From SAR86 cluster bacterium (GTDB lineage: Bacteria > Pseudomonadota > Gammaproteobacteria > Magnimaribacterales > Magnimaribacteraceae), in assembly GCA_023703575.1 (NCBI GenBank), contig CP097969.1:1521517-1585516 (forward strand): a stretch of 64,000 bases of DNA, read 5' to 3'. Both the position numbers and the translations under genes were made by a program. Under the pieces are notes generated by a model. The model was not told the origin of the DNA. It saw only the letters and a list, made by a program, of their open reading frames with translations, and did no database searches. Shown piece by piece: positions 48,072 to 54,392 of the stretch. Numbering within the stretch: position 1 is the stretch's first letter; every line of letters begins with the position of its first letter.

Positions 48072-48908
48072 TCATCCATATTTCTTTATTAAGTTTATAG
48101 CCCATTTCCTTACATTTGGATTTTTTTCAATATCCAGAATGAATTCTTGGCCAAATCCTCTGTAAAATACTGTTGATTCTTGTTCATTCTCCCACTTCAT
48201 TCTATTTAAAAAAAGGTCTTTTGAATCTTTAAAATATTTTGAGGGTAACTTCCATCTAGATCTTGTTTTATTTTTTTCTGTCAGAATTAAATCTGTATGA
48301 GTATGTTTAAATAATCCATGGCCTCGGTCAAAAATTTTTCTTTTATTAAGTTCCAAGTTTTTCTTGGCTATGTAAATTGTATTATTAGAAAATCTAGAGG
48401 TGTCTCCATATCCATGAGGGTGTTGAACATTATTCTCACGAAGATAACTTTTAATTTCTTTTGACCCTTCTATGATTTTATCTATTTGCAACCAACCAAA
48501 TAAATGGTGCAAATCTCTGCCATCTGCTGAGAAATTTTTAAACCATCCAAAAAATAAAAACACATCTCCAGGGCCTACATGATTATTTTTTAATTCAGTC
48601 TGAGATGAGCTGGCTTGTCCAAAAATACCGATTCTTTCGTTGAGCAATGGATCATAATGGCAATAATCCGTATCCTTTACTTTAGCCGAGACCTCTTTCA
48701 ATAAATCAGAACCTGATATGCCATTAAAATCCAGGTCTTTATATTTTTTTGGTGAACAATGATTTTGGGGGATAGGTATTGAAAAAAAGCTTCCGTCATT
48801 AAATATAGGTGAAGCACTACCACCCGCTTTTGAGTCAAAACCCTTTCTACTTAATATTAATCTCCTCAAGTAACCTTTGTTTATAGTTAACCAAAGCCAA
48901 TAGAACAA
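48072..48908 (-). CDS. Nmad3-like (nucleotide modification associated domain 3) protein
   Basis: 278 residues. RLILSRKGFDSKAGGSASPI followed by FFSIPIP at the N-terminus, HVGPGDVFLFFGWFK in the middle and YRGFGQEFILDIEKNPNVRKW at the end match my memory of Nmad3, a domain predicted from phage and restriction-like neighbourhoods to be linked to DNA base modification. The first 13 residues (MFYWLWLTINKGY) look foreign to the family; a TTG at 48869 may be the true start. As given, it overlaps the upstream gene by 22 nt. Confidence 0.7.
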   Translation of the reverse strand: MFYWLWLTINKGYLRRLILSRKGFDSKAGGSASPIFNDGSFFSIPIPQNHCSPKKYKDLDFNGISGSDLLKEVSAKVKDTDYCHYDPLLNERIGIFGQASSSQTELKNNHVGPGDVFLFFGWFKNFSADGRDLHHLFGWLQIDKIIEGSKEIKSYLRENNVQHPHGYGDTSRFSNNTIYIAKKNLELNKRKIFDRGHGLFKHTHTDLILTEKNKTRSRWKLPSKYFKDSKDLFLNRMKWENEQESTVFYRGFGQEFILDIEKNPNVRKWAINLIKKYG

Positions 48909-49883: not shown

Positions 49884-49920
49884 TTACTCCACTGTAACGG
49901 GGTGTCTGTAGCAAGGTTTC
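49884..49920 (-). repeat. glmS-tail-like boundary B4
   Basis: Forward TTACTCCACTGTAACG (49884-49899) matches the glmS stop region TTACTCCACCGTTACA closely. Farther on, GCAAGGTTTCTC corresponds to GCGAGGTTTCTC of the glmS codons for Arg-Asn-Leu-Ala. On the minus strand it thus reads like a damaged copy of the final glmS codons including the TAA stop. Confidence 0.7.
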
Positions 49921-50091
49921 TCATGGATTTAATAGGTCTATGAGAGAATTATTTTCATCCACGATCCTGTGTCGTATGCCTTTTTGTTTTACCATCTGCT
50001 TCATTACACGGAAAGCATCTGCTTCATTTGTTTTGGTTTGATAGTGTTGCCAGTTACCCCACCTATCTTGCCACTGTATTTTATATTTCAT
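49921..50091 (-). CDS. Conserved-looking small protein (56 aa), cassette gene
   Basis: ATG at 50091, TGA at 49921-49923. The product starts MKYKIQWQDRWGNWQHYQTK and ends RHRIVDENNSLIDLLNP: two Trp-rich strands, a helix (NEADAFRVMKQMVKQKG) and a final strand, a compact fold with no signal peptide. Similar 55-60-residue proteins with a W-x(n)-YQT...KRHRIVD pattern are, to my memory, common in marine bacteria. Function unknown. It lies between boundaries B3 and B4. Confidence 0.7.
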   Translation of the reverse strand: MKYKIQWQDRWGNWQHYQTKTNEADAFRVMKQMVKQKGIRHRIVDENNSLIDLLNP

Positions 50092-50191
50092 TCGACAGTA
50101 ACGATTTAGATTTGAGTGCAGAATTAAGAGTGTAGTATTTTCTGAACCCTTTGTGAAACTTCAAATAAAACTCAATTTCTTTTTTATTCAT
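50081..50191 (-). CDS. Micro-ORF (36 aa), divergent third paralogue
   Basis: ATG at 50191, TAA at 50081-50083. The peptide begins MNKKEIEFYLKFHKGFRKYY and continues TLNSALKSKS. FY-x(2)-F-x-K-x-F and LNS-x-L match the micro-ORFs at 50561-50650 and 52023-52139 with the same spacing. Its 3' end runs through boundary B3 and overlaps the start of the 56-residue gene by 11 nt. Confidence 0.5.
   Translation of the reverse strand: MNKKEIEFYLKFHKGFRKYYTLNSALKSKSLLSNEI
50088..50127 (-). repeat. glmS-tail-like boundary B3
   Basis: Forward TCATTCGACAGTAACG (50088-50103) followed by an A/T stretch and GAGTGCAGAATT. On the minus strand it aligns with the B1 sequence from ATTCT to GAATGA with about two thirds identity over 37 nt, and the core keeps the GTxACxGTxGA pattern. 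It immediately precedes the 56-residue gene, whose ATG lies within it. Confidence 0.55.
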
Positions 50192-50197
50192 AAAAAA

Positions 50198-50554
50198 TCA
50201 ACATATCATGCAATGATCGATAAGAATTTTGCCTTCTACTTCCTTAAAAATTGCTTGATTAATCAATTCGTCATTACTTGAAGAAGTTTTTTGTTTCCAA
50301 ACAATTCCAACTGAGTCGTTTCTTCTAAATAAGCACACAAACTCTCTTTTAGTCCAATAAACTTTTGGTTCAATTGATAATTGTCTTTTGAGTTCTTCAG
50401 GTGTAACTATGGACTTCATTCTATTTGTGAAATACTTTGTATGCTTTTTATGATCACCCTCATTGGAACCCTCCAAACAACTATCCATAATTGGTTCTAC
50501 TATACTAAGAATTTCATCTTCACTAAGATTGGGGAGTTTCAATTCTGCACTCAA
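50198..50554 (-). CDS. Hypothetical protein (118 aa), cassette gene
   Basis: Start TTG at 50554, the only usable start, right beside boundary B2. The product has DEILSIVEPIMDSCLEGSNE, HTKYFTNRMKSIVTPEEL, a WTKREFVCLFRRNDSVGIVW core and IDHCMIC at the end. The arrangement (helices, then strands with paired aromatic residues) suggests an NTF2-like fold. No signal peptide. No known family recognised. Confidence 0.6.
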   Translation of the reverse strand: MSAELKLPNLSEDEILSIVEPIMDSCLEGSNEGDHKKHTKYFTNRMKSIVTPEELKRQLSIEPKVYWTKREFVCLFRRNDSVGIVWKQKTSSSNDELINQAIFKEVEGKILIDHCMIC

Positions 50555-50556
50555 GA

Positions 50557-50650
50557 CTATTCAACCGTCACAGTTTAAGTTTGAACAGAGAATTAGATTC
50601 TTGAACCTTTTATCAAACATCACATAAAACTTTTTGTATTTTTTAACCAT
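50557..50650 (-). repeat. 94-nt repeat unit with boundary B2
   Basis: Aligns without gaps to 52046-52139 (my count 79 of 94 identical). It contains micro-ORF 50561-50650 and the core CTATTCAACCGTCACA (50557-50572). It separates the nuclease gene from the 118-residue gene. Confidence 0.85.
50561..50650 (-). CDS. Micro-ORF (29 aa) conserved with 52023-52139
   Basis: ATG at 50650, TGA at 50561-50563. The peptide reads MVKKYKKFYVMFDKRFKNLI then LCSNLNCDG. From codon 4 to the Gly codon it differs from the 52139 copy by seven bases, of which six are silent third-position changes and one swaps Val for Met. That pattern argues that the peptide itself is under selection. It overlaps the nuclease stop by 8 nt, so coupled translation is possible. 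Function unknown. Confidence 0.6.
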   Translation of the reverse strand: MVKKYKKFYVMFDKRFKNLILCSNLNCDG

Positions 50651-51659
50651 TTCTTGTCATGTGGTAAAAATTTTTATCTTTTTCATAGATAATTTCAATA
50701 TTTTGAGAATAGATTAGATCGACTAAATCTTCTCTCGGTTGTGACGGCAACAAAATGGCAAGTTTTTCAGGTTTAGGAATATGATGCCTTTTATAGTCAT
50801 GTAATTGTCCTATTGCCATCCTAATATCAGATCTTGTTGATGATGCTTTTGCCTCTATAAGAGTTTTAGTTTCATGAACCCAACCATCTGTTTCGAGAGT
50901 CACTGATTCATCTGATGCATTAATTTTAATTTTATTTTTTTCAAGTTCTCCAATATTATTTTTAATTAAATGTTTTTTATATCGTTTCACTAATTCCCTT
51001 TCCTTTTGTTCGATTATTACTTCTCTCTTAGACCTGGTTGTTGAAGACACAGAAACTTCTCCGTCATTATGTTCTATAAGTGTTGAGGAAGTTTCTTTCT
51101 GGATTGGAATATCTTTTAATTCGACGTTTGTTTTATTAATGTCTATTAAATTAAAAGCATCTAAAAGACTTTCTGAATCGAACTCATCAAGACATCTATA
51201 TCCCTGAAGAAGGTTTTCTTCTGAATAACCAAAAAGTTTGTTATATGTATCTATGGATATGTTCAAATCCTTATAGTCTTTAATTATGAACATGTTTTCC
51301 CAAGTTTCATTAATTCCTAATTTTTTGTTAAATTTCTCTCCCCACAACTTAAGAGCAAAATCTTTGCTATGGAATTTTTCATGAACAAGACAAAAACTAT
51401 AGAACTTTCTATCTTTATAAAATAATCCGATATCATTTGGTTCCATTTTTAACCACTTGTTTTTATTTAAAAGACCGTCTTTTCCTCCATTAGTAACACC
51501 CCAAAGAGCATAGGATTTATCTACTAGGGATTCAGATATCTGATTATTAACATATTTTTTAATTTCTTCAGTCTTACAATTAACTGAGTGATTTAAAATA
51601 GTATCTATGTAGTGTTTTCTAGAATCAGGATTTGATGCTGGAAGGAGATGTACTTTCAT
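50643..51659 (-). CDS. EVE-like/PD-(D/E)xK nuclease, possible modification-dependent endonuclease
   Basis: 338 residues. N-terminal part (about 40-165): YALWGVTNGGKDGLL, MEPNDIGLFYKDRKFYSFC, ALKLWGEKF and TWENMFIIKDYKDLNI resemble the EVE/PUA-like fold that reads modified bases. A linker with SVSSTTRSKREVIIEQ follows. C-terminal part (about 235-338): TDGWVHETKTLIEAKASSTR holds D...ExK, and AIGQLHDYKRHH is the QxxxY helix typical of restriction-type PD-(D/E)xK nucleases. Overlaps the MazG-like gene by 4 nt. The EVE assignment is by pattern only. Confidence 0.65.
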   Translation of the reverse strand: MKVHLLPASNPDSRKHYIDTILNHSVNCKTEEIKKYVNNQISESLVDKSYALWGVTNGGKDGLLNKNKWLKMEPNDIGLFYKDRKFYSFCLVHEKFHSKDFALKLWGEKFNKKLGINETWENMFIIKDYKDLNISIDTYNKLFGYSEENLLQGYRCLDEFDSESLLDAFNLIDINKTNVELKDIPIQKETSSTLIEHNDGEVSVSSTTRSKREVIIEQKERELVKRYKKHLIKNNIGELEKNKIKINASDESVTLETDGWVHETKTLIEAKASSTRSDIRMAIGQLHDYKRHHIPKPEKLAILLPSQPREDLVDLIYSQNIEIIYEKDKNFYHMTRNG

Positions 51660-52018
51660 AATTTATCGTATTTTTCAGACTTTCCTTTAGATTTTTCAAT
51701 AGGATACTTTTCATCATTTTTTTGAATCTTTTCTATAGAAATCTTTTCTAAATCTATGTCCATTAAATCTACGAACTTAACTAAATAATTAAATATATCG
51801 GCAATTTCTTCTTCGATTTGTTTTCTCGTGTCAGGATCATTTATTTCTTTTGTGCCACCATCATTTGACCACTGAAAGATTTCTACAAGTTCTGCAACTT
51901 CGACTGAAAGTGCCATAGCAAGATTTTTAGGAGAGTGATATTGTTCCCAATTTCTGTCTTTAGAAAATTTCTTTAGTCTCTCATTAATTTTTTCTAAATT
52001 TAATTCTTTTTTATTCAT
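51656..52018 (-). CDS. MazG-like dNTP pyrophosphatase, DCTPP1/RS21-C6 type
   Basis: 120 residues. KDRNWEQYHSPKNLAMALSV with EVAELVEIFQWSND is the RS21-C6 signature (RdWxqyHsPkNLalAlsvEvaEL-EiFQW), and EEEIADIFNYLVKF supplies the E-x-x-D metal ligands. Mammalian DCTPP1 hydrolyses dCTP and prefers 5-modified dCTP. ATG at 52018; its stop overlaps the nuclease start (ATGA), so the two are translated together. This is a different subtype from the MazG-like protein at 21160. Confidence 0.85.
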   Translation of the reverse strand: MNKKELNLEKINERLKKFSKDRNWEQYHSPKNLAMALSVEVAELVEIFQWSNDGGTKEINDPDTRKQIEEEIADIFNYLVKFVDLMDIDLEKISIEKIQKNDEKYPIEKSKGKSEKYDKL

Positions 52019-52022
52019 AAAA

Positions 52023-52139
52023 TTAGAATAATTCTCTGTTCAAACTCATTCCACCGTCACAGTTTAAGTTTGAACAGAGAATAAGATTTTTGAATCTCTT
52101 ATCAAACATCATATAAAACTTCTTGTACTTATCTTTCAT
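52023..52139 (-). CDS. Micro-ORF (38 aa) conserved with 50561-50650
   Basis: ATG at 52139, TAA at 52023-52025. The peptide starts MKDKYKKFYMMFDKRFKNLI and continues LCSNLNCDGG, then reads on through the boundary core as MSLNRELF. Charged and aromatic, two Cys, no membrane segment. The paired copy shows mostly silent differences. It lies between the DUF2306 stop and the MazG-like start. Function unknown. Confidence 0.6.
   Translation of the reverse strand: MKDKYKKFYMMFDKRFKNLILCSNLNCDGGMSLNRELF
52030..52139 (-). repeat. 94-nt repeat unit with boundary B1 and a 15-bp inverted repeat
   Basis: Core TCATTCCACCGTCACA at 52046-52061. The stretch 52030-52062 matches 52541-52573 (glmS stop and trailer) at 30 of 33 positions. 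ATTCTCTGTTCAAAC (52031-52045) and GTTTGAACAGAGAAT (52068-52082) form a perfect 15-bp inverted repeat around a 22-nt loop. 52046-52139 is the gap-free duplicate of 50557-50650. Confidence 0.85.
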
Positions 52140-52141
52140 TA

Positions 52142-52528
52142 TTATCCAAAAAATATCTCATGAAAAAATCTTCCTGGCATCAAAGTAAATGCACCAGCAA
52201 TCAAAAGTGCCCCAACGTAGACACCAATCATAGAGTACATATGTGCGAACTTATATCTTTCTATTTTTGTATTTTTAAATTTCTTTATATTCCAAATTGA
52301 GTAAATCAATGACCCAATAGTCCATGGTATTAAAAGATGAATTAATGAATATTGACCGGGATTAATTGCTTGAATAAATATTGCTGTCAAAGAAACTATT
52401 ATTAAAAAAGTTACCCAGATTCGTCCGAGTATTCTATGTTGCTTTGTGCCCTTTTTGGTTAGGAGGATGTAAAGACCAAGTGGAACTGCGAGTAATGCTA
52501 ACGTTGCATGAGCATAAATTATCTGCAT
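52142..52528 (-). CDS. DUF2306-type membrane protein
   Basis: 128 residues with four helices. MQIIYAHATLALLAVPLGLY, THRxxGR-type loop KKGTKQHRILGRIWV, HLLIPWTIGSLIYSIW and KFAHMYSMIGVYVGALLIAG place conserved His residues at the membrane face as in DUF2306. Function unknown. First gene after glmS on the transcript; B0 is the glmS tail, and the coding region starts 29 nt beyond the glmS stop. Confidence 0.75.
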   Translation of the reverse strand: MQIIYAHATLALLAVPLGLYILLTKKGTKQHRILGRIWVTFLIIVSLTAIFIQAINPGQYSLIHLLIPWTIGSLIYSIWNIKKFKNTKIERYKFAHMYSMIGVYVGALLIAGAFTLMPGRFFHEIFFG

Positions 52529-52540
52529 TTTTTATACCGC

Positions 52541-52573
52541 AATTCTCTGTTCAAACTTACTCCACCGTTACAG
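52541..52573 (-). repeat. glmS stop-codon region and trailer: reference copy B0 of the boundary repeat
   Basis: Forward TTACTCCACCGTTACA (52557-52572) is the glmS end including its TAA stop, and AATTCTCTGTTCAAAC (52541-52556) is the trailer. Versions of it recur at 52046, 50557, 50088 and 49884 between unrelated genes. The 3' end of glmS is the well-known target of Tn7-type transposons and other integrating elements. Confidence 0.8.
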
Positions 52574-54392
52574 ACTTAGCGAGGTTTCTCGGCTGATCAA
52601 TGTCAGTGCCTTTAAGGATGGCAACATGATAAGCAAGTAACTGTAATGGTATCGAGTAAATTAGAGGAGCAATCAGCTCAGGGACTTCAGGCAGTTCAAT
52701 AAACTTAGTTATGGATTCATCTTCCTGATGAGCTGCTGAGTGTCCAAATACATATAGCTTTCCTCCTCGCGCTCTAACTTCTTCTAGGTTTGATTGAAGT
52801 TTTGCAAGCAGATCATCATTAGGAGCAACTGCAACAACAGGCATTTCTGAATCGACAAGAGCCAATGGTCCATGTTTCAGTTCTCCGGCTGGATAGGCTT
52901 CCGCATGTATGTAGGAAATTTCTTTAAGTTTTAAGGCACCTTCCATAGCTACTGGATAATGAATACCCCTGCCTAAAAAGAGTGCATGTTCCTTTTGATC
53001 AAAATCCTCAGCCATCTCAATAATTTGATCTTCAAGCAACATGACTGAATCCAAAGAATCAGGAAGCGCTCTAAGTGCATTATTTATGGTATTTTCTGCA
53101 GCTGAGGATAGGCCATGGTGCCTCCCAAGGATAAGAGTTAACATTAACAAACCGACAAGCTGTGTTGTGAAAGCTTTTGTTGAAGCAACACCAATTTCAG
53201 GGCCTGCTTTTGTTAAAAATACTAAATCAGATTCTCTCGCTAAAGAGCTTGAAGGAACATTGCATATACCGAGGCGAGCTAAGTAGCCTGAATCTTTAGC
53301 GGCACTTAAACAAGCAAGCGTATCTGCTGTTTCCCCAGACTGAGAAATGGTTATAAACAGAGTATTGGGTGCCACTACTTTATTTCTATATCTAAATTCA
53401 CTTGCCACTTCTACGCTGCAGGGCAGCCCGGCAAGACCTTCCAGCCAATATTTAGCTACTGTTCCAGCATGAAAGCTGGTTCCACAAGCCACTATCTGAA
53501 CGGCCTCAACATTTTTAAAAATATCAGGTGCACTAGGCCCAAATATTTCTTCCTGAACACCTGAATCAGTCAATTGTCCTTCTAATAAGCCTTTAATTTT
53601 TGACGGCTGCTCATTAATCTCTTTAAGCATGAAGTGCCTATATTCGCCTTTATCAACCGTCTCTCCTAAAGACTTAGCAACTACAACCGGCCTTTCAACC
53701 TCTATATCATCTAGATCCCAGTAGCGAATTCCTTCAGAGGTGATTTCCGCAAGATCCCCCTCTTCAAGAAATACAAAATTCTCAGCAAAATCTGCCAAGG
53801 CAAGCTGATCTGAGGCTATGAAATTTTCACCATGGCCCATACCGATAACCAAAGGACTTCCTTTTCTGGCTGAAGCCAAAATACCTGGTTCACTCTCACA
53901 AACTGCTCCTATAGCGTAAGCCCCTCTTAGATCTTTCACAGCGGCCCTCAATGCCTCGATCAGAGATATTTTATTCTTGTTCATTTTTGCATGAATCAAA
54001 TGCGCTATAACTTCTGTATCTGTCTCTGACTCAAAAACATAACCTAAAGCTTTTAGTGTGGTTCTAATTTCTTGATGATTCTCAATAATACCGTTGTGAA
54101 TAACAAAAATATTATTATTTGAATGATGAGGGTGAGCATTTGTCTCTGTTGGCAGGCCATGGGTTGCCCATCTGGTGTGAGCAATACCTGTATTACCATT
54201 CACGGGATTTTCAGCAATAGAATTTTGCAACTCTGCCACCTTACCAGTGCTTTTAAATACCTTTATTTGTTCTGTTTCATCAAAGATAGCAAGGCCAGCT
54301 GAGTCATATCCTCTATATTCCTGTCGTAAAAGTCCTATCAGAAGCTTATCTACTGACGGTTTGCTAGAAGCTACTCCGATTATTCCACACAT
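52557..54392 (-). CDS. glmS: Glutamine-fructose-6-phosphate aminotransferase
   Basis: Makes glucosamine-6-phosphate, the entry to UDP-GlcNAc. The N-terminal glutaminase has MCGIIGVASS with Cys2, RTRWATHG-type HTRWATHGLPTETNAHPH and IIENHQEIR. Two SIS domains follow: ACGTSFHAGTVAKYW with VEVASEFRYR, and FLGRGIHYPVAMEGALKLKE with HAEAYPAGELKHGPLALV. The C-terminus is QPRNLAKSVTVE. 611 residues (E. coli 609). 3 nt after glmU. Confidence 0.98.
   Translation of the reverse strand: MCGIIGVASSKPSVDKLLIGLLRQEYRGYDSAGLAIFDETEQIKVFKSTGKVAELQNSIAENPVNGNTGIAHTRWATHGLPTETNAHPHHSNNNIFVIHNGIIENHQEIRTTLKALGYVFESETDTEVIAHLIHAKMNKNKISLIEALRAAVKDLRGAYAIGAVCESEPGILASARKGSPLVIGMGHGENFIASDQLALADFAENFVFLEEGDLAEITSEGIRYWDLDDIEVERPVVVAKSLGETVDKGEYRHFMLKEINEQPSKIKGLLEGQLTDSGVQEEIFGPSAPDIFKNVEAVQIVACGTSFHAGTVAKYWLEGLAGLPCSVEVASEFRYRNKVVAPNTLFITISQSGETADTLACLSAAKDSGYLARLGICNVPSSSLARESDLVFLTKAGPEIGVASTKAFTTQLVGLLMLTLILGRHHGLSSAAENTINNALRALPDSLDSVMLLEDQIIEMAEDFDQKEHALFLGRGIHYPVAMEGALKLKEISYIHAEAYPAGELKHGPLALVDSEMPVVAVAPNDDLLAKLQSNLEEVRARGGKLYVFGHSAAHQEDESITKFIELPEVPELIAPLIYSIPLQLLAYHVAILKGTDIDQPRNLAKSVTVE

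What the first reader, a model, noticed from the sequence alone, without database searches (positions are those of the whole stretch)
50643..52018. Two-gene unit: dCTPase-like MazG protein plus EVE-like/PD-(D/E)xK nuclease, a candidate anti-phage system
A DCTPP1/RS21-C6-type pyrophosphatase (family known to cleave 5-modified dCTP) overlaps by 4 nt a protein that joins an EVE/PUA-like N-terminus (fold that reads modified bases in type IV restriction proteins) to a nuclease domain with D...ExK and QxxxY. Together they could strip modified dNTPs from the pool and cut modified phage DNA. The pair sits in an insertion hotspot between repeat boundaries and so behaves like a mobile defence cassette. 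The combination is inferred; I know no described system with exactly this composition.
Basis: partly seen in the sequence, partly recalled or inferred. Interest (0 to 1): 0.82.

Follow-up and report, generated by a model that had tools for sequence, protein, structure and literature searches.

The report
Mobile modified-DNA cutter with nucleotide cleaner
A small mobile gene pair in a bacterium with a small genome joins a predicted reader-and-cutter of chemically modified DNA to an enzyme resembling ones that destroy modified DNA building blocks, and the same pairing recurs in distantly related bacteria with other cutting domains, so it is probably an anti-phage system.

Summary
A 120-aa dCTPP1-type MazG overlaps by 4 nt a 338-aa protein whose predicted N-terminal fold is a YTH/EVE-type modified-base reader; its best solved match is the reader domain of Thermococcus gammatolerans McrB. 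The C-terminus carries D…ExK and QLxDY motifs, but its nuclease fold was not separately confirmed. The two genes alone fill a 1,489-bp cassette in an array at the 3' end of glmS. In 203 genomes of the order, 5 of 5 readers have MazG directly upstream (one seen only as 13 codons), and 5 of 5 MazGs adjoin a putative modification-dependent nuclease. Over all loci opened, MazG is beside 17 of 36 distinct readers, plus 2 broken remnants: 17 of 27 bacterial, 0 of 9 archaeal. Effectors behind it are PD-(D/E)xK-like, GIY-YIG-like, NOV_C or HNH. Reader–nuclease fusions are in print; I found no MazG pairing in the library searched. The modified-cytosine target is weakened: all five order hosts encode a C5-cytosine methyltransferase, and the closest fold relative is reported to read 6mA. 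Most likely a type IV-like restriction cassette whose MazG removes the modified precursor; that coupling is inferred. New variant of a known kind.

The parts
51656..52018 (-). MazG-like nucleotide pyrophosphohydrolase, dCTPP1/RS21-C6 type, 120 aa, first gene of the pair
   Evidence: Pfam PF12643 3.7e-12, 46.8 bits vs cut-off 27; PDB dCTPP1 8.8e-21 with ExxE, ExxD and the W..H..W positions aligned
50643..51659 (-). 338-aa reader-nuclease protein, second gene, overlaps MazG by 4 nt
   Evidence: homologue at 55% identity in G007
51126..51659 (-). N-terminal reader domain (residues 1-178), YTH/EVE PUA-superfamily fold
   Evidence: AlphaFold2 block pLDDT 73-95 for residues 1-170, 54 for 171-180; VIA top hits 6p0g/6p0f Z 12.7, 2hd9 Z 11.1, 6yex Z 10.8; PHROG 14240 at 2.7e-21 over residues 3-213
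50643..50927 (-). C-terminal putative PD-(D/E)xK nuclease (about residues 245-338): TDGW, LIEAK, AIGQLxDYK
   Evidence: motif conserved in the three aligned homologues; predicted strand-helix order; no significant profile hit
52028..52045 (-). left terminal inverted repeat of the cassette
   Evidence: 17 of 18 positions match the right end
50579..50596 (-). right terminal inverted repeat of the cassette, ending 7 nt before the next glmS-like core
52046..52060 (-). copy of the glmS 3' end bounding the cassette upstream
   Evidence: 0 mismatches
50557..50571 (-). copy of the glmS 3' end bounding the cassette downstream
   Evidence: 1 mismatch
52557..54392 (-). glmS, chromosomal anchor of the array (native core at 52557-52571)
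   Evidence: gene name from its SIS and GATase domains and C-terminus, recalled
52142..52528 (-). neighbouring cassette 1: DUF2306 membrane protein
   Evidence: PF10067 4.3e-9; same gene elsewhere in the array of G010
50198..50554 (-). neighbouring cassette 3: 118-aa protein of unknown function
   Evidence: found in a different order in G010
49884..50102 (-). cassette 4 region (56-aa ORF) between the last two glmS-like cores; its ends do not match each other (2 of 18)

Best explanation
A mobile two-gene, type IV-like (modification-dependent) restriction cassette. The 338-aa protein flips out and binds a modified base in DNA with its YTH/EVE-type domain and cuts the DNA with its C-terminal nuclease. 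MazG hydrolyses the matching modified dNTP to the monophosphate, so that the mark is kept out of the host's own DNA (self-protection) and the phage's supply of modified precursor is reduced. Shown by computation: gene pair, MazG family, predicted reader fold, recurrent pairing in bacteria, differing effectors, cassette borders. Inferred: nuclease activity, the base read, the MazG substrate, and the coupling of the two.
For: Predicted reader fold closest to a modified-DNA reader of a restriction enzyme, and the HNH homologue likewise (Z 15.0). Over 36 distinct loci 17 have MazG and 2 broken remnants. Effectors differ while MazG and reader stay: PD-(D/E)xK-like (window, G007), GIY-YIG-like (G011, G118, G166), NOV_C (G486, 7.9e-21), HNH (Actinomycetota, Terribacillus). 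The two genes are the sole content of a cassette. Precedent: MutT homologues beside SauUSI homologues (PMC7641849, legend passage).
Against: The C-terminal nuclease fold has no significant profile or structure hit. No PADLOC model matches either window gene. No infection data.
Confidence: 0.55

Rival explanations
1. Type IV-like restriction enzyme plus a MazG that depletes ordinary dCTP/dNTPs during infection to starve phage replication; no matching of substrate and mark.
For: dCTPP1 acts on plain dCTP as well as modified dCTP (PMC7162842, abstract start); MazG is listed among predicted but unvalidated defence domains (PMC13092281, section 8).
Against: The unit shows no separate sensor for MazG, and constitutive depletion would harm the host (inference). 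In the order MazG is found only beside reader or HNH genes.
Confidence: 0.17
2. MazG is a dedicated regulator or immunity partner (antitoxin-like) that binds or restrains the nuclease, its pyrophosphatase activity being secondary.
For: VcaM4I without its EVE domain and linker becomes a toxic nuclease (PMC7897488 abstract).
Against: 17 of 36 readers have no MazG; ExxE and ExxD residues are kept in MazG; partners have four effector types; in G090 MazG comes second.
Confidence: 0.15
3. The reader binds N6-methyladenine like TgMcrB, so the pair targets 6mA-marked DNA, and MazG hydrolyses a matching modified purine or has another task. This concerns the base read and overlaps with the other readings.
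For: Top fold match is TgMcrB-N for both models; 5 of 5 order hosts have a C5-cytosine methyltransferase, 0 of 5 have PF02086 and 0 of 5 PF01555.
Against: A fold match does not set specificity. G487, a same-class genome with a reader-HNH protein without MazG, does carry a PF02086 methyltransferase. Other N6 methyltransferase families and the background rate in the order were not tested; MazG resembles a dCTP enzyme.
Confidence: 0.27
4. The pairing is hitch-hiking: two unrelated genes frozen together in a mobile cassette.
For: The window copy is in a cassette array.
Against: The same gene order occurs in G011, G118, G166 and G486 with no glmS core in the stretches searched and in Actinomycetota and Terribacillus with other effectors.
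Confidence: 0.05

Closest known systems
EVE/YTH-PD(D/E)XK, EVE-HNH and EVE-GIY-YIG putative type IV restriction enzymes (Bell et al. 2020, PMC7641849)
   Same: Reader domain of the PUA superfamily fused to different nucleases; McrB-type variants exist there and one related locus here is McrB-like (L012).
   Different: No MazG partner is mentioned: the word MazG occurs 0 times in that text.
VcaM4I, EVE-HNH endonuclease (PMC7897488)
   Same: Overall plan of reader plus nuclease; the HNH homologue model aligns to VcaM4I with Z 13.9, rmsd 11.0 over 235 residues.
   Different: Window protein has a PD-(D/E)xK-like C-terminus, 6% identity over the aligned reader, and a MazG partner.
[quoted passage not shown]
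   Same: Best fold match of the reader domain (Z 12.7 and 15.0).
   Different: Fused to an AAA+ GTPase working with McrC; reported specific for 6mA (PMC7680126 passage).
dCTP pyrophosphatase 1 (DCTPP1/RS21-C6)
   Same: MazG-type family, E 8.8e-21 with catalytic and W/H/W positions aligned.
   Different: Bacterial, linked to a nuclease gene; substrate untested.
MutT homologues beside SauUSI homologues in Streptococcus (PMC7641849, Fig. 9 legend)
   Same: A nucleotide hydrolase next to a type IV restriction enzyme homologue.
   Different: MutT (NUDIX, recalled) rather than MazG; SauUSI is a different enzyme.

Membership tests
Type IV (modification-dependent) restriction enzyme, PUA-reader-nuclease fusion | N-terminal modified-base reader of the PUA superfamily | tested here: met
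   Predicted fold with TgMcrB-N, EVE and YTH domains as top matches; fold only, binding untested
Type IV (modification-dependent) restriction enzyme, PUA-reader-nuclease fusion | Nuclease catalytic domain | tested here: inconclusive
   D...ExK and QLxDY motifs conserved, predicted order of strands and helices; Pfam hits sub-threshold (Tox-REase-9 0.053 for the window protein, best 0.0076 among six C-terminal sequences); no meaningful PDB sequence hit
Type IV (modification-dependent) restriction enzyme, PUA-reader-nuclease fusion | No cognate methyltransferase in the unit | tested here: met
   Window cassette holds only the two genes; C5 methyltransferase genes do lie near the unit in G118 and G166, beside other nuclease-like genes
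Type IV (modification-dependent) restriction enzyme, PUA-reader-nuclease fusion | Cleaves modified but not unmodified DNA | not testable with these tools
   needs biochemistry
EVE family (Pfam PF01878) | Significant match to the EVE model | tested here: inconclusive
   No hit for the window protein; homologue L011 19.1 bits, E 0.0013, below the cut-off of 23; fold match Z 11.1 to PH1033 (PH1033 as an EVE protein is recalled)
dCTPP1/RS21-C6-type MazG | Family profile and ExxE...ExxD motif | tested here: met
   PF12643 46.8 bits vs 27; dCTPP1 structures 8.8e-21 with motif aligned
dCTPP1/RS21-C6-type MazG | Hydrolyses modified dCTP | not testable with these tools
   needs enzyme assay
Known anti-phage defence system (PADLOC 2.0.0) | Match to a system component model | tested here: not met
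   No model for either window gene up to E 1; effector parts of some relatives do match PADLOC models
Tn7-type insertion at glmS | Insertion some distance downstream of the stop codon with a 5-bp duplication (recalled) | tested here: not met
   Cassette left ends abut the stop codon and a core of 15 nt or more is repeated; transposition genes were looked for only by eye

The most novel reading that the evidence does not exclude
A two-level restriction strategy: one module forbids a given modified base both as polymer (reader-nuclease) and as precursor (matched MazG). The nuclease head is exchanged between lineages, and the MazG substrate predicts the base read by its partner, so paired genomes could be used to decode reader specificity.
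Probability: 0.35. Interest if true: 0.8.

Novelty: new variant of a known kind. Interest (0 to 1): 0.62.

Why it matters
Nucleotide-pool enzymes are predicted in defence loci, but PMC13092281 says of several such domains, in a list that includes MazG, that none had been validated. A recurring MazG-plus-reader pair with different nucleases links pool hygiene to modification-dependent restriction and gives a direct test: does the MazG substrate match the base its partner reads? If so, one could infer unknown phage DNA modifications from gene pairs. The unit also travels in very small cassettes at glmS, a carrier worth study on its own.

Tried and rejected
Searches of viral contigs with the whole protein, the C-terminal alignment and a three-row reader alignment found no relatives; the actinobacterial reader alignment found two loci.

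Profile comparison of the C-terminus with a NucS-type domain was not significant; PDB hits of the C-terminal profile looked like chance. Foldseek gave no match at E 0.001 or better for the window model (best 1.5e-3, VcaM4I); the Z-scores come from a second look at its candidates.

I considered that the cassette borders are chance repeats: rejected (18 of 35 cassettes reach 14 of 18 at offset 7 and 0 at any other offset from 0 to 20; shuffled pairing mean 1.4, maximum 7). But 14 of the 35 match at fewer than 12 positions, including the window's fourth. I looked for a recombinase: three PF00589 matches in the genome, none at glmS, and I noticed none among the cassette ORFs listed (read by eye, not searched by profile); the mobiliser is unknown. 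Two paper searches on glmS cassettes matched 118 and 2,748 papers, of which 10 and 12 were listed; none of the listed titles or abstract starts described them.

The methyltransferase argument has limits. Only PF00145, PF02086 and PF01555 were searched, in 7 genomes. The two class genomes behave otherwise: G486 and G487 have no PF00145 match, G487 has PF02086, and G486 a PF01555 match below the cut-off.

Plasmid and phage searches matched 26 and 3 records; 20 and 3 were listed. I opened all 13 listed plasmid records and the 1 phage record with reader matches, and 3 of 7 plasmid and 1 of 2 phage records with C-terminal matches only; the 6 unlisted records were not seen. In counting I dropped L022 (same record as L007), L036 (same proteins as L024) and L095 (reader identical to L008). 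The genome-contig scan used a query built from actinobacterial sequences, so it leans to them.

Full report
OBSERVATION. The pair is as described: MazG-like ORF 51656-52018 and 338-aa ORF 50643-51659, both minus strand, sharing ATGA. MazG scores 46.8 bits against PF12643 (cut-off 27) and aligns to dCTP pyrophosphatase 1 at 8.8e-21 with the ExxE and ExxD residues and the W, H, W positions kept (their roles in RS21-C6 are recalled). The 338-aa protein has no significant hit in Pfam, PADLOC or NCBIfam and matches PHROG 14240, function unknown, at 2.7e-21 over residues 3-213. The genome is one contig of 1.59 Mb, unnamed by the tools, with one copy of the gene.

STRUCTURE. An AlphaFold2 model from 16 sequences has mean pLDDT 73.9; ten-residue blocks of residues 1-170 lie at 73-95, and weak stretches at 177-188 and 226-267. 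Foldseek's best match is VcaM4I at 1.5e-3. A second alignment of Foldseek's candidates ranks the N-terminal domain of T. gammatolerans McrB first (Z 12.7, 154 residues, 3.0 A), then PH1033 (Z 11.1), VcaM4I (Z 10.8) and YTH domains near Z 10. A homologue with an HNH C-terminus (L024) gives TgMcrB-N at Z 15.0 and VcaM4I at Z 13.9 (235 residues, rmsd 11.0, so domain placement differs), and its HNH part matches the modification-dependent enzyme TagI at Z 9.0. The C-terminus is less certain: the motif TDGW…LIEAK…AIGQLxDYK is conserved in the three aligned homologues and the predicted strands and helices fit a PD-(D/E)xK core, but profile hits are sub-threshold.

THE PAIRING. MazG lies directly upstream in all five; in G007 the contig ends there and only 13 codons are visible, NKFKGKSDKYNKL against EKSKGKSEKYDKL in the window. 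Of 14 opened plasmid and phage records with reader matches, MazG is intact in 2, broken in 3 (two of them with an identical reader) and not found in 9. In 14 genome-contig loci it is directly upstream in 8, broken in 1 (a record already counted as a plasmid) and absent in 5; both viral loci have it, one identical to L024. Removing the three duplicates leaves 36 loci: 17 with MazG, 2 remnants, 17 without. All 9 archaeal loci lack it; among the 27 bacterial loci it is 17, 2 and 8. These loci were found by related queries and are not independent, but the 17 include the window's own lineage, Actinomycetota and Terribacillus (Bacillota).

DIFFERENT EFFECTORS. Behind MazG and reader come a PD-(D/E)xK-like domain (window, G007), a GIY-YIG-like domain (G011, G118, G166; motif read by eye, homing-endonuclease PHROG 3.6e-4 for G166), a NOV_C domain (G486, 7.9e-21) or HNH (Nocardiopsis by annotation; Streptomyces and Terribacillus by sub-threshold HNH_2 hits, 0.017 and 0.003, and Streptomyces also by the TagI fold match). 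A constant reader on changing nucleases is what a specificity module would show.

MOBILITY. Copies of the glmS 3' end bound the unit. In a 10.6-kb stretch of the window and 16 stretches downstream of glmS from relatives, 52 such cores, 17 of them the native glmS ends, lie on the glmS strand and none on the other over 209 kb. Of 35 cassettes, 18 have 18-nt ends matching at 14 or more positions when the left end starts right after the core and the right end stops exactly 7 nt before the next; at every other offset from 0 to 20 the count is 0, and with shuffled partners the mean is 1.4, maximum 7. Fourteen of the 35 match at fewer than 12 positions. The MazG-nuclease cassette is 1,489 bp with ends matching at 17 of 18 and holds nothing else. 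The distance from glmS to the conserved 2OG oxygenase varies from about 1.2 kb (G021) to about 11.8 kb (G008) and 12.3 kb (G012), and the 118-aa, DUF2306 and 56-aa genes recur in another order in G010 without the pair. The G007 nuclease lies in the same array, near Nmad3 and the oxygenase. This fits movement of single cassettes. No recombinase was noticed.

WHICH BASE? Two results speak against generic 5mC. TgMcrB-N is reported to read 6mA (PMC7680126 and PMC7897488, passages; the PDB title of 6p0g names m5C DNA). And 5 of 5 reader genomes of the order encode a C5-cytosine methyltransferase, while PF02086 and PF01555 are found in 0 of 5. In the window's genome that enzyme's gene overlaps a TdeIII-type endonuclease gene (5.4e-51), so its DNA is probably 5mC-marked at some sites. 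Against a simple 6mA rule, the class genome G487 has a reader-HNH protein and a PF02086 methyltransferase, and neither G486 nor G487 has PF00145. 5hmC, other hypermodified bases, a particular sequence context, or 6mA remain open.

MECHANISM. The best-supported reading is modification-dependent restriction with MazG as guard of the precursor pool. The recurrent pairing and lone cassette argue for a shared job; the precursor role is inferred from the dCTPP1 family and from the MutT–SauUSI neighbourhood in PMC7641849 (legend passage). Starvation of the phage, or MazG as a restraint on the nuclease, are the main rivals.

NOVELTY. Bell et al. 2020 report EVE–PD(D/E)XK, EVE–HNH, EVE–GIY-YIG and YTH–PD(D/E)XK fusions (section 9 and passages). 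DefensePredictor lists MazG among predicted, unvalidated defence domains (section 8); its figure was not seen, so I cannot tell which genes accompany that MazG. My searches for the pairing matched 0, 45, 2, 1, 11 and 2 papers, of which 0, 20, 2, 1, 10 and 2 were listed; no listed title or abstract start describes it. The library lacks most subscription papers. I therefore call it a new variant of a known kind.

Noticed in passing
window 49884-52571 and loci L062-L077: Family-wide array of small cassettes (186 to 5,303 bp) at the 3' end of glmS, about half of them with matching 18-nt terminal inverted repeats of their own, each followed by a glmS-end core; carrier enzyme unknown.
   Followed up: partly
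L069, L070, L075, L076, L062 (glmS arrays of relatives): Other cassettes seem to carry restriction or nuclease genes: type I-like pair, NucS-like, C5 methyltransferase with HNH, HIT plus HNH; named by eye, so the hotspot looks like a defence reservoir.
   Followed up: partly
L065 and L069 cassettes: Small proteins with a GYRKI..LN helix-turn-helix-like stretch resembling the DNA-binding part of serine recombinases (recalled motif); possible cassette-mobility factors.
   Followed up: no
window 48072-48908: Nmad3 protein (nucleotide modification associated domain 3, 1.6e-55) at the far end of the same array, found in six relatives' stretches.
   Followed up: partly
L092 (G000 contig 1, 465000-476000): C5-cytosine methyltransferase overlapping a TdeIII-type endonuclease gene, with a Fic-like protein beside it (Fic by eye).
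   Followed up: partly
L003/L093 (G013): Same C-terminal nuclease-like domain joined to a different N-terminus with a weak type IV restriction match (PADLOC mREase_IV 0.0046), next to an integrase-like gene (by eye).
   Followed up: partly
L091:2968-4477 (G090): A related MazG at the end of a different HNH_2 gene, suggesting MazG also pairs with other reader types.
   Followed up: partly
window 49884-49920 and matching ends in L062, L075: Some array ends keep a longer decayed copy of the glmS tail (AACCTTGCTAC), as if an older gene end had been pushed outward.
   Followed up: no
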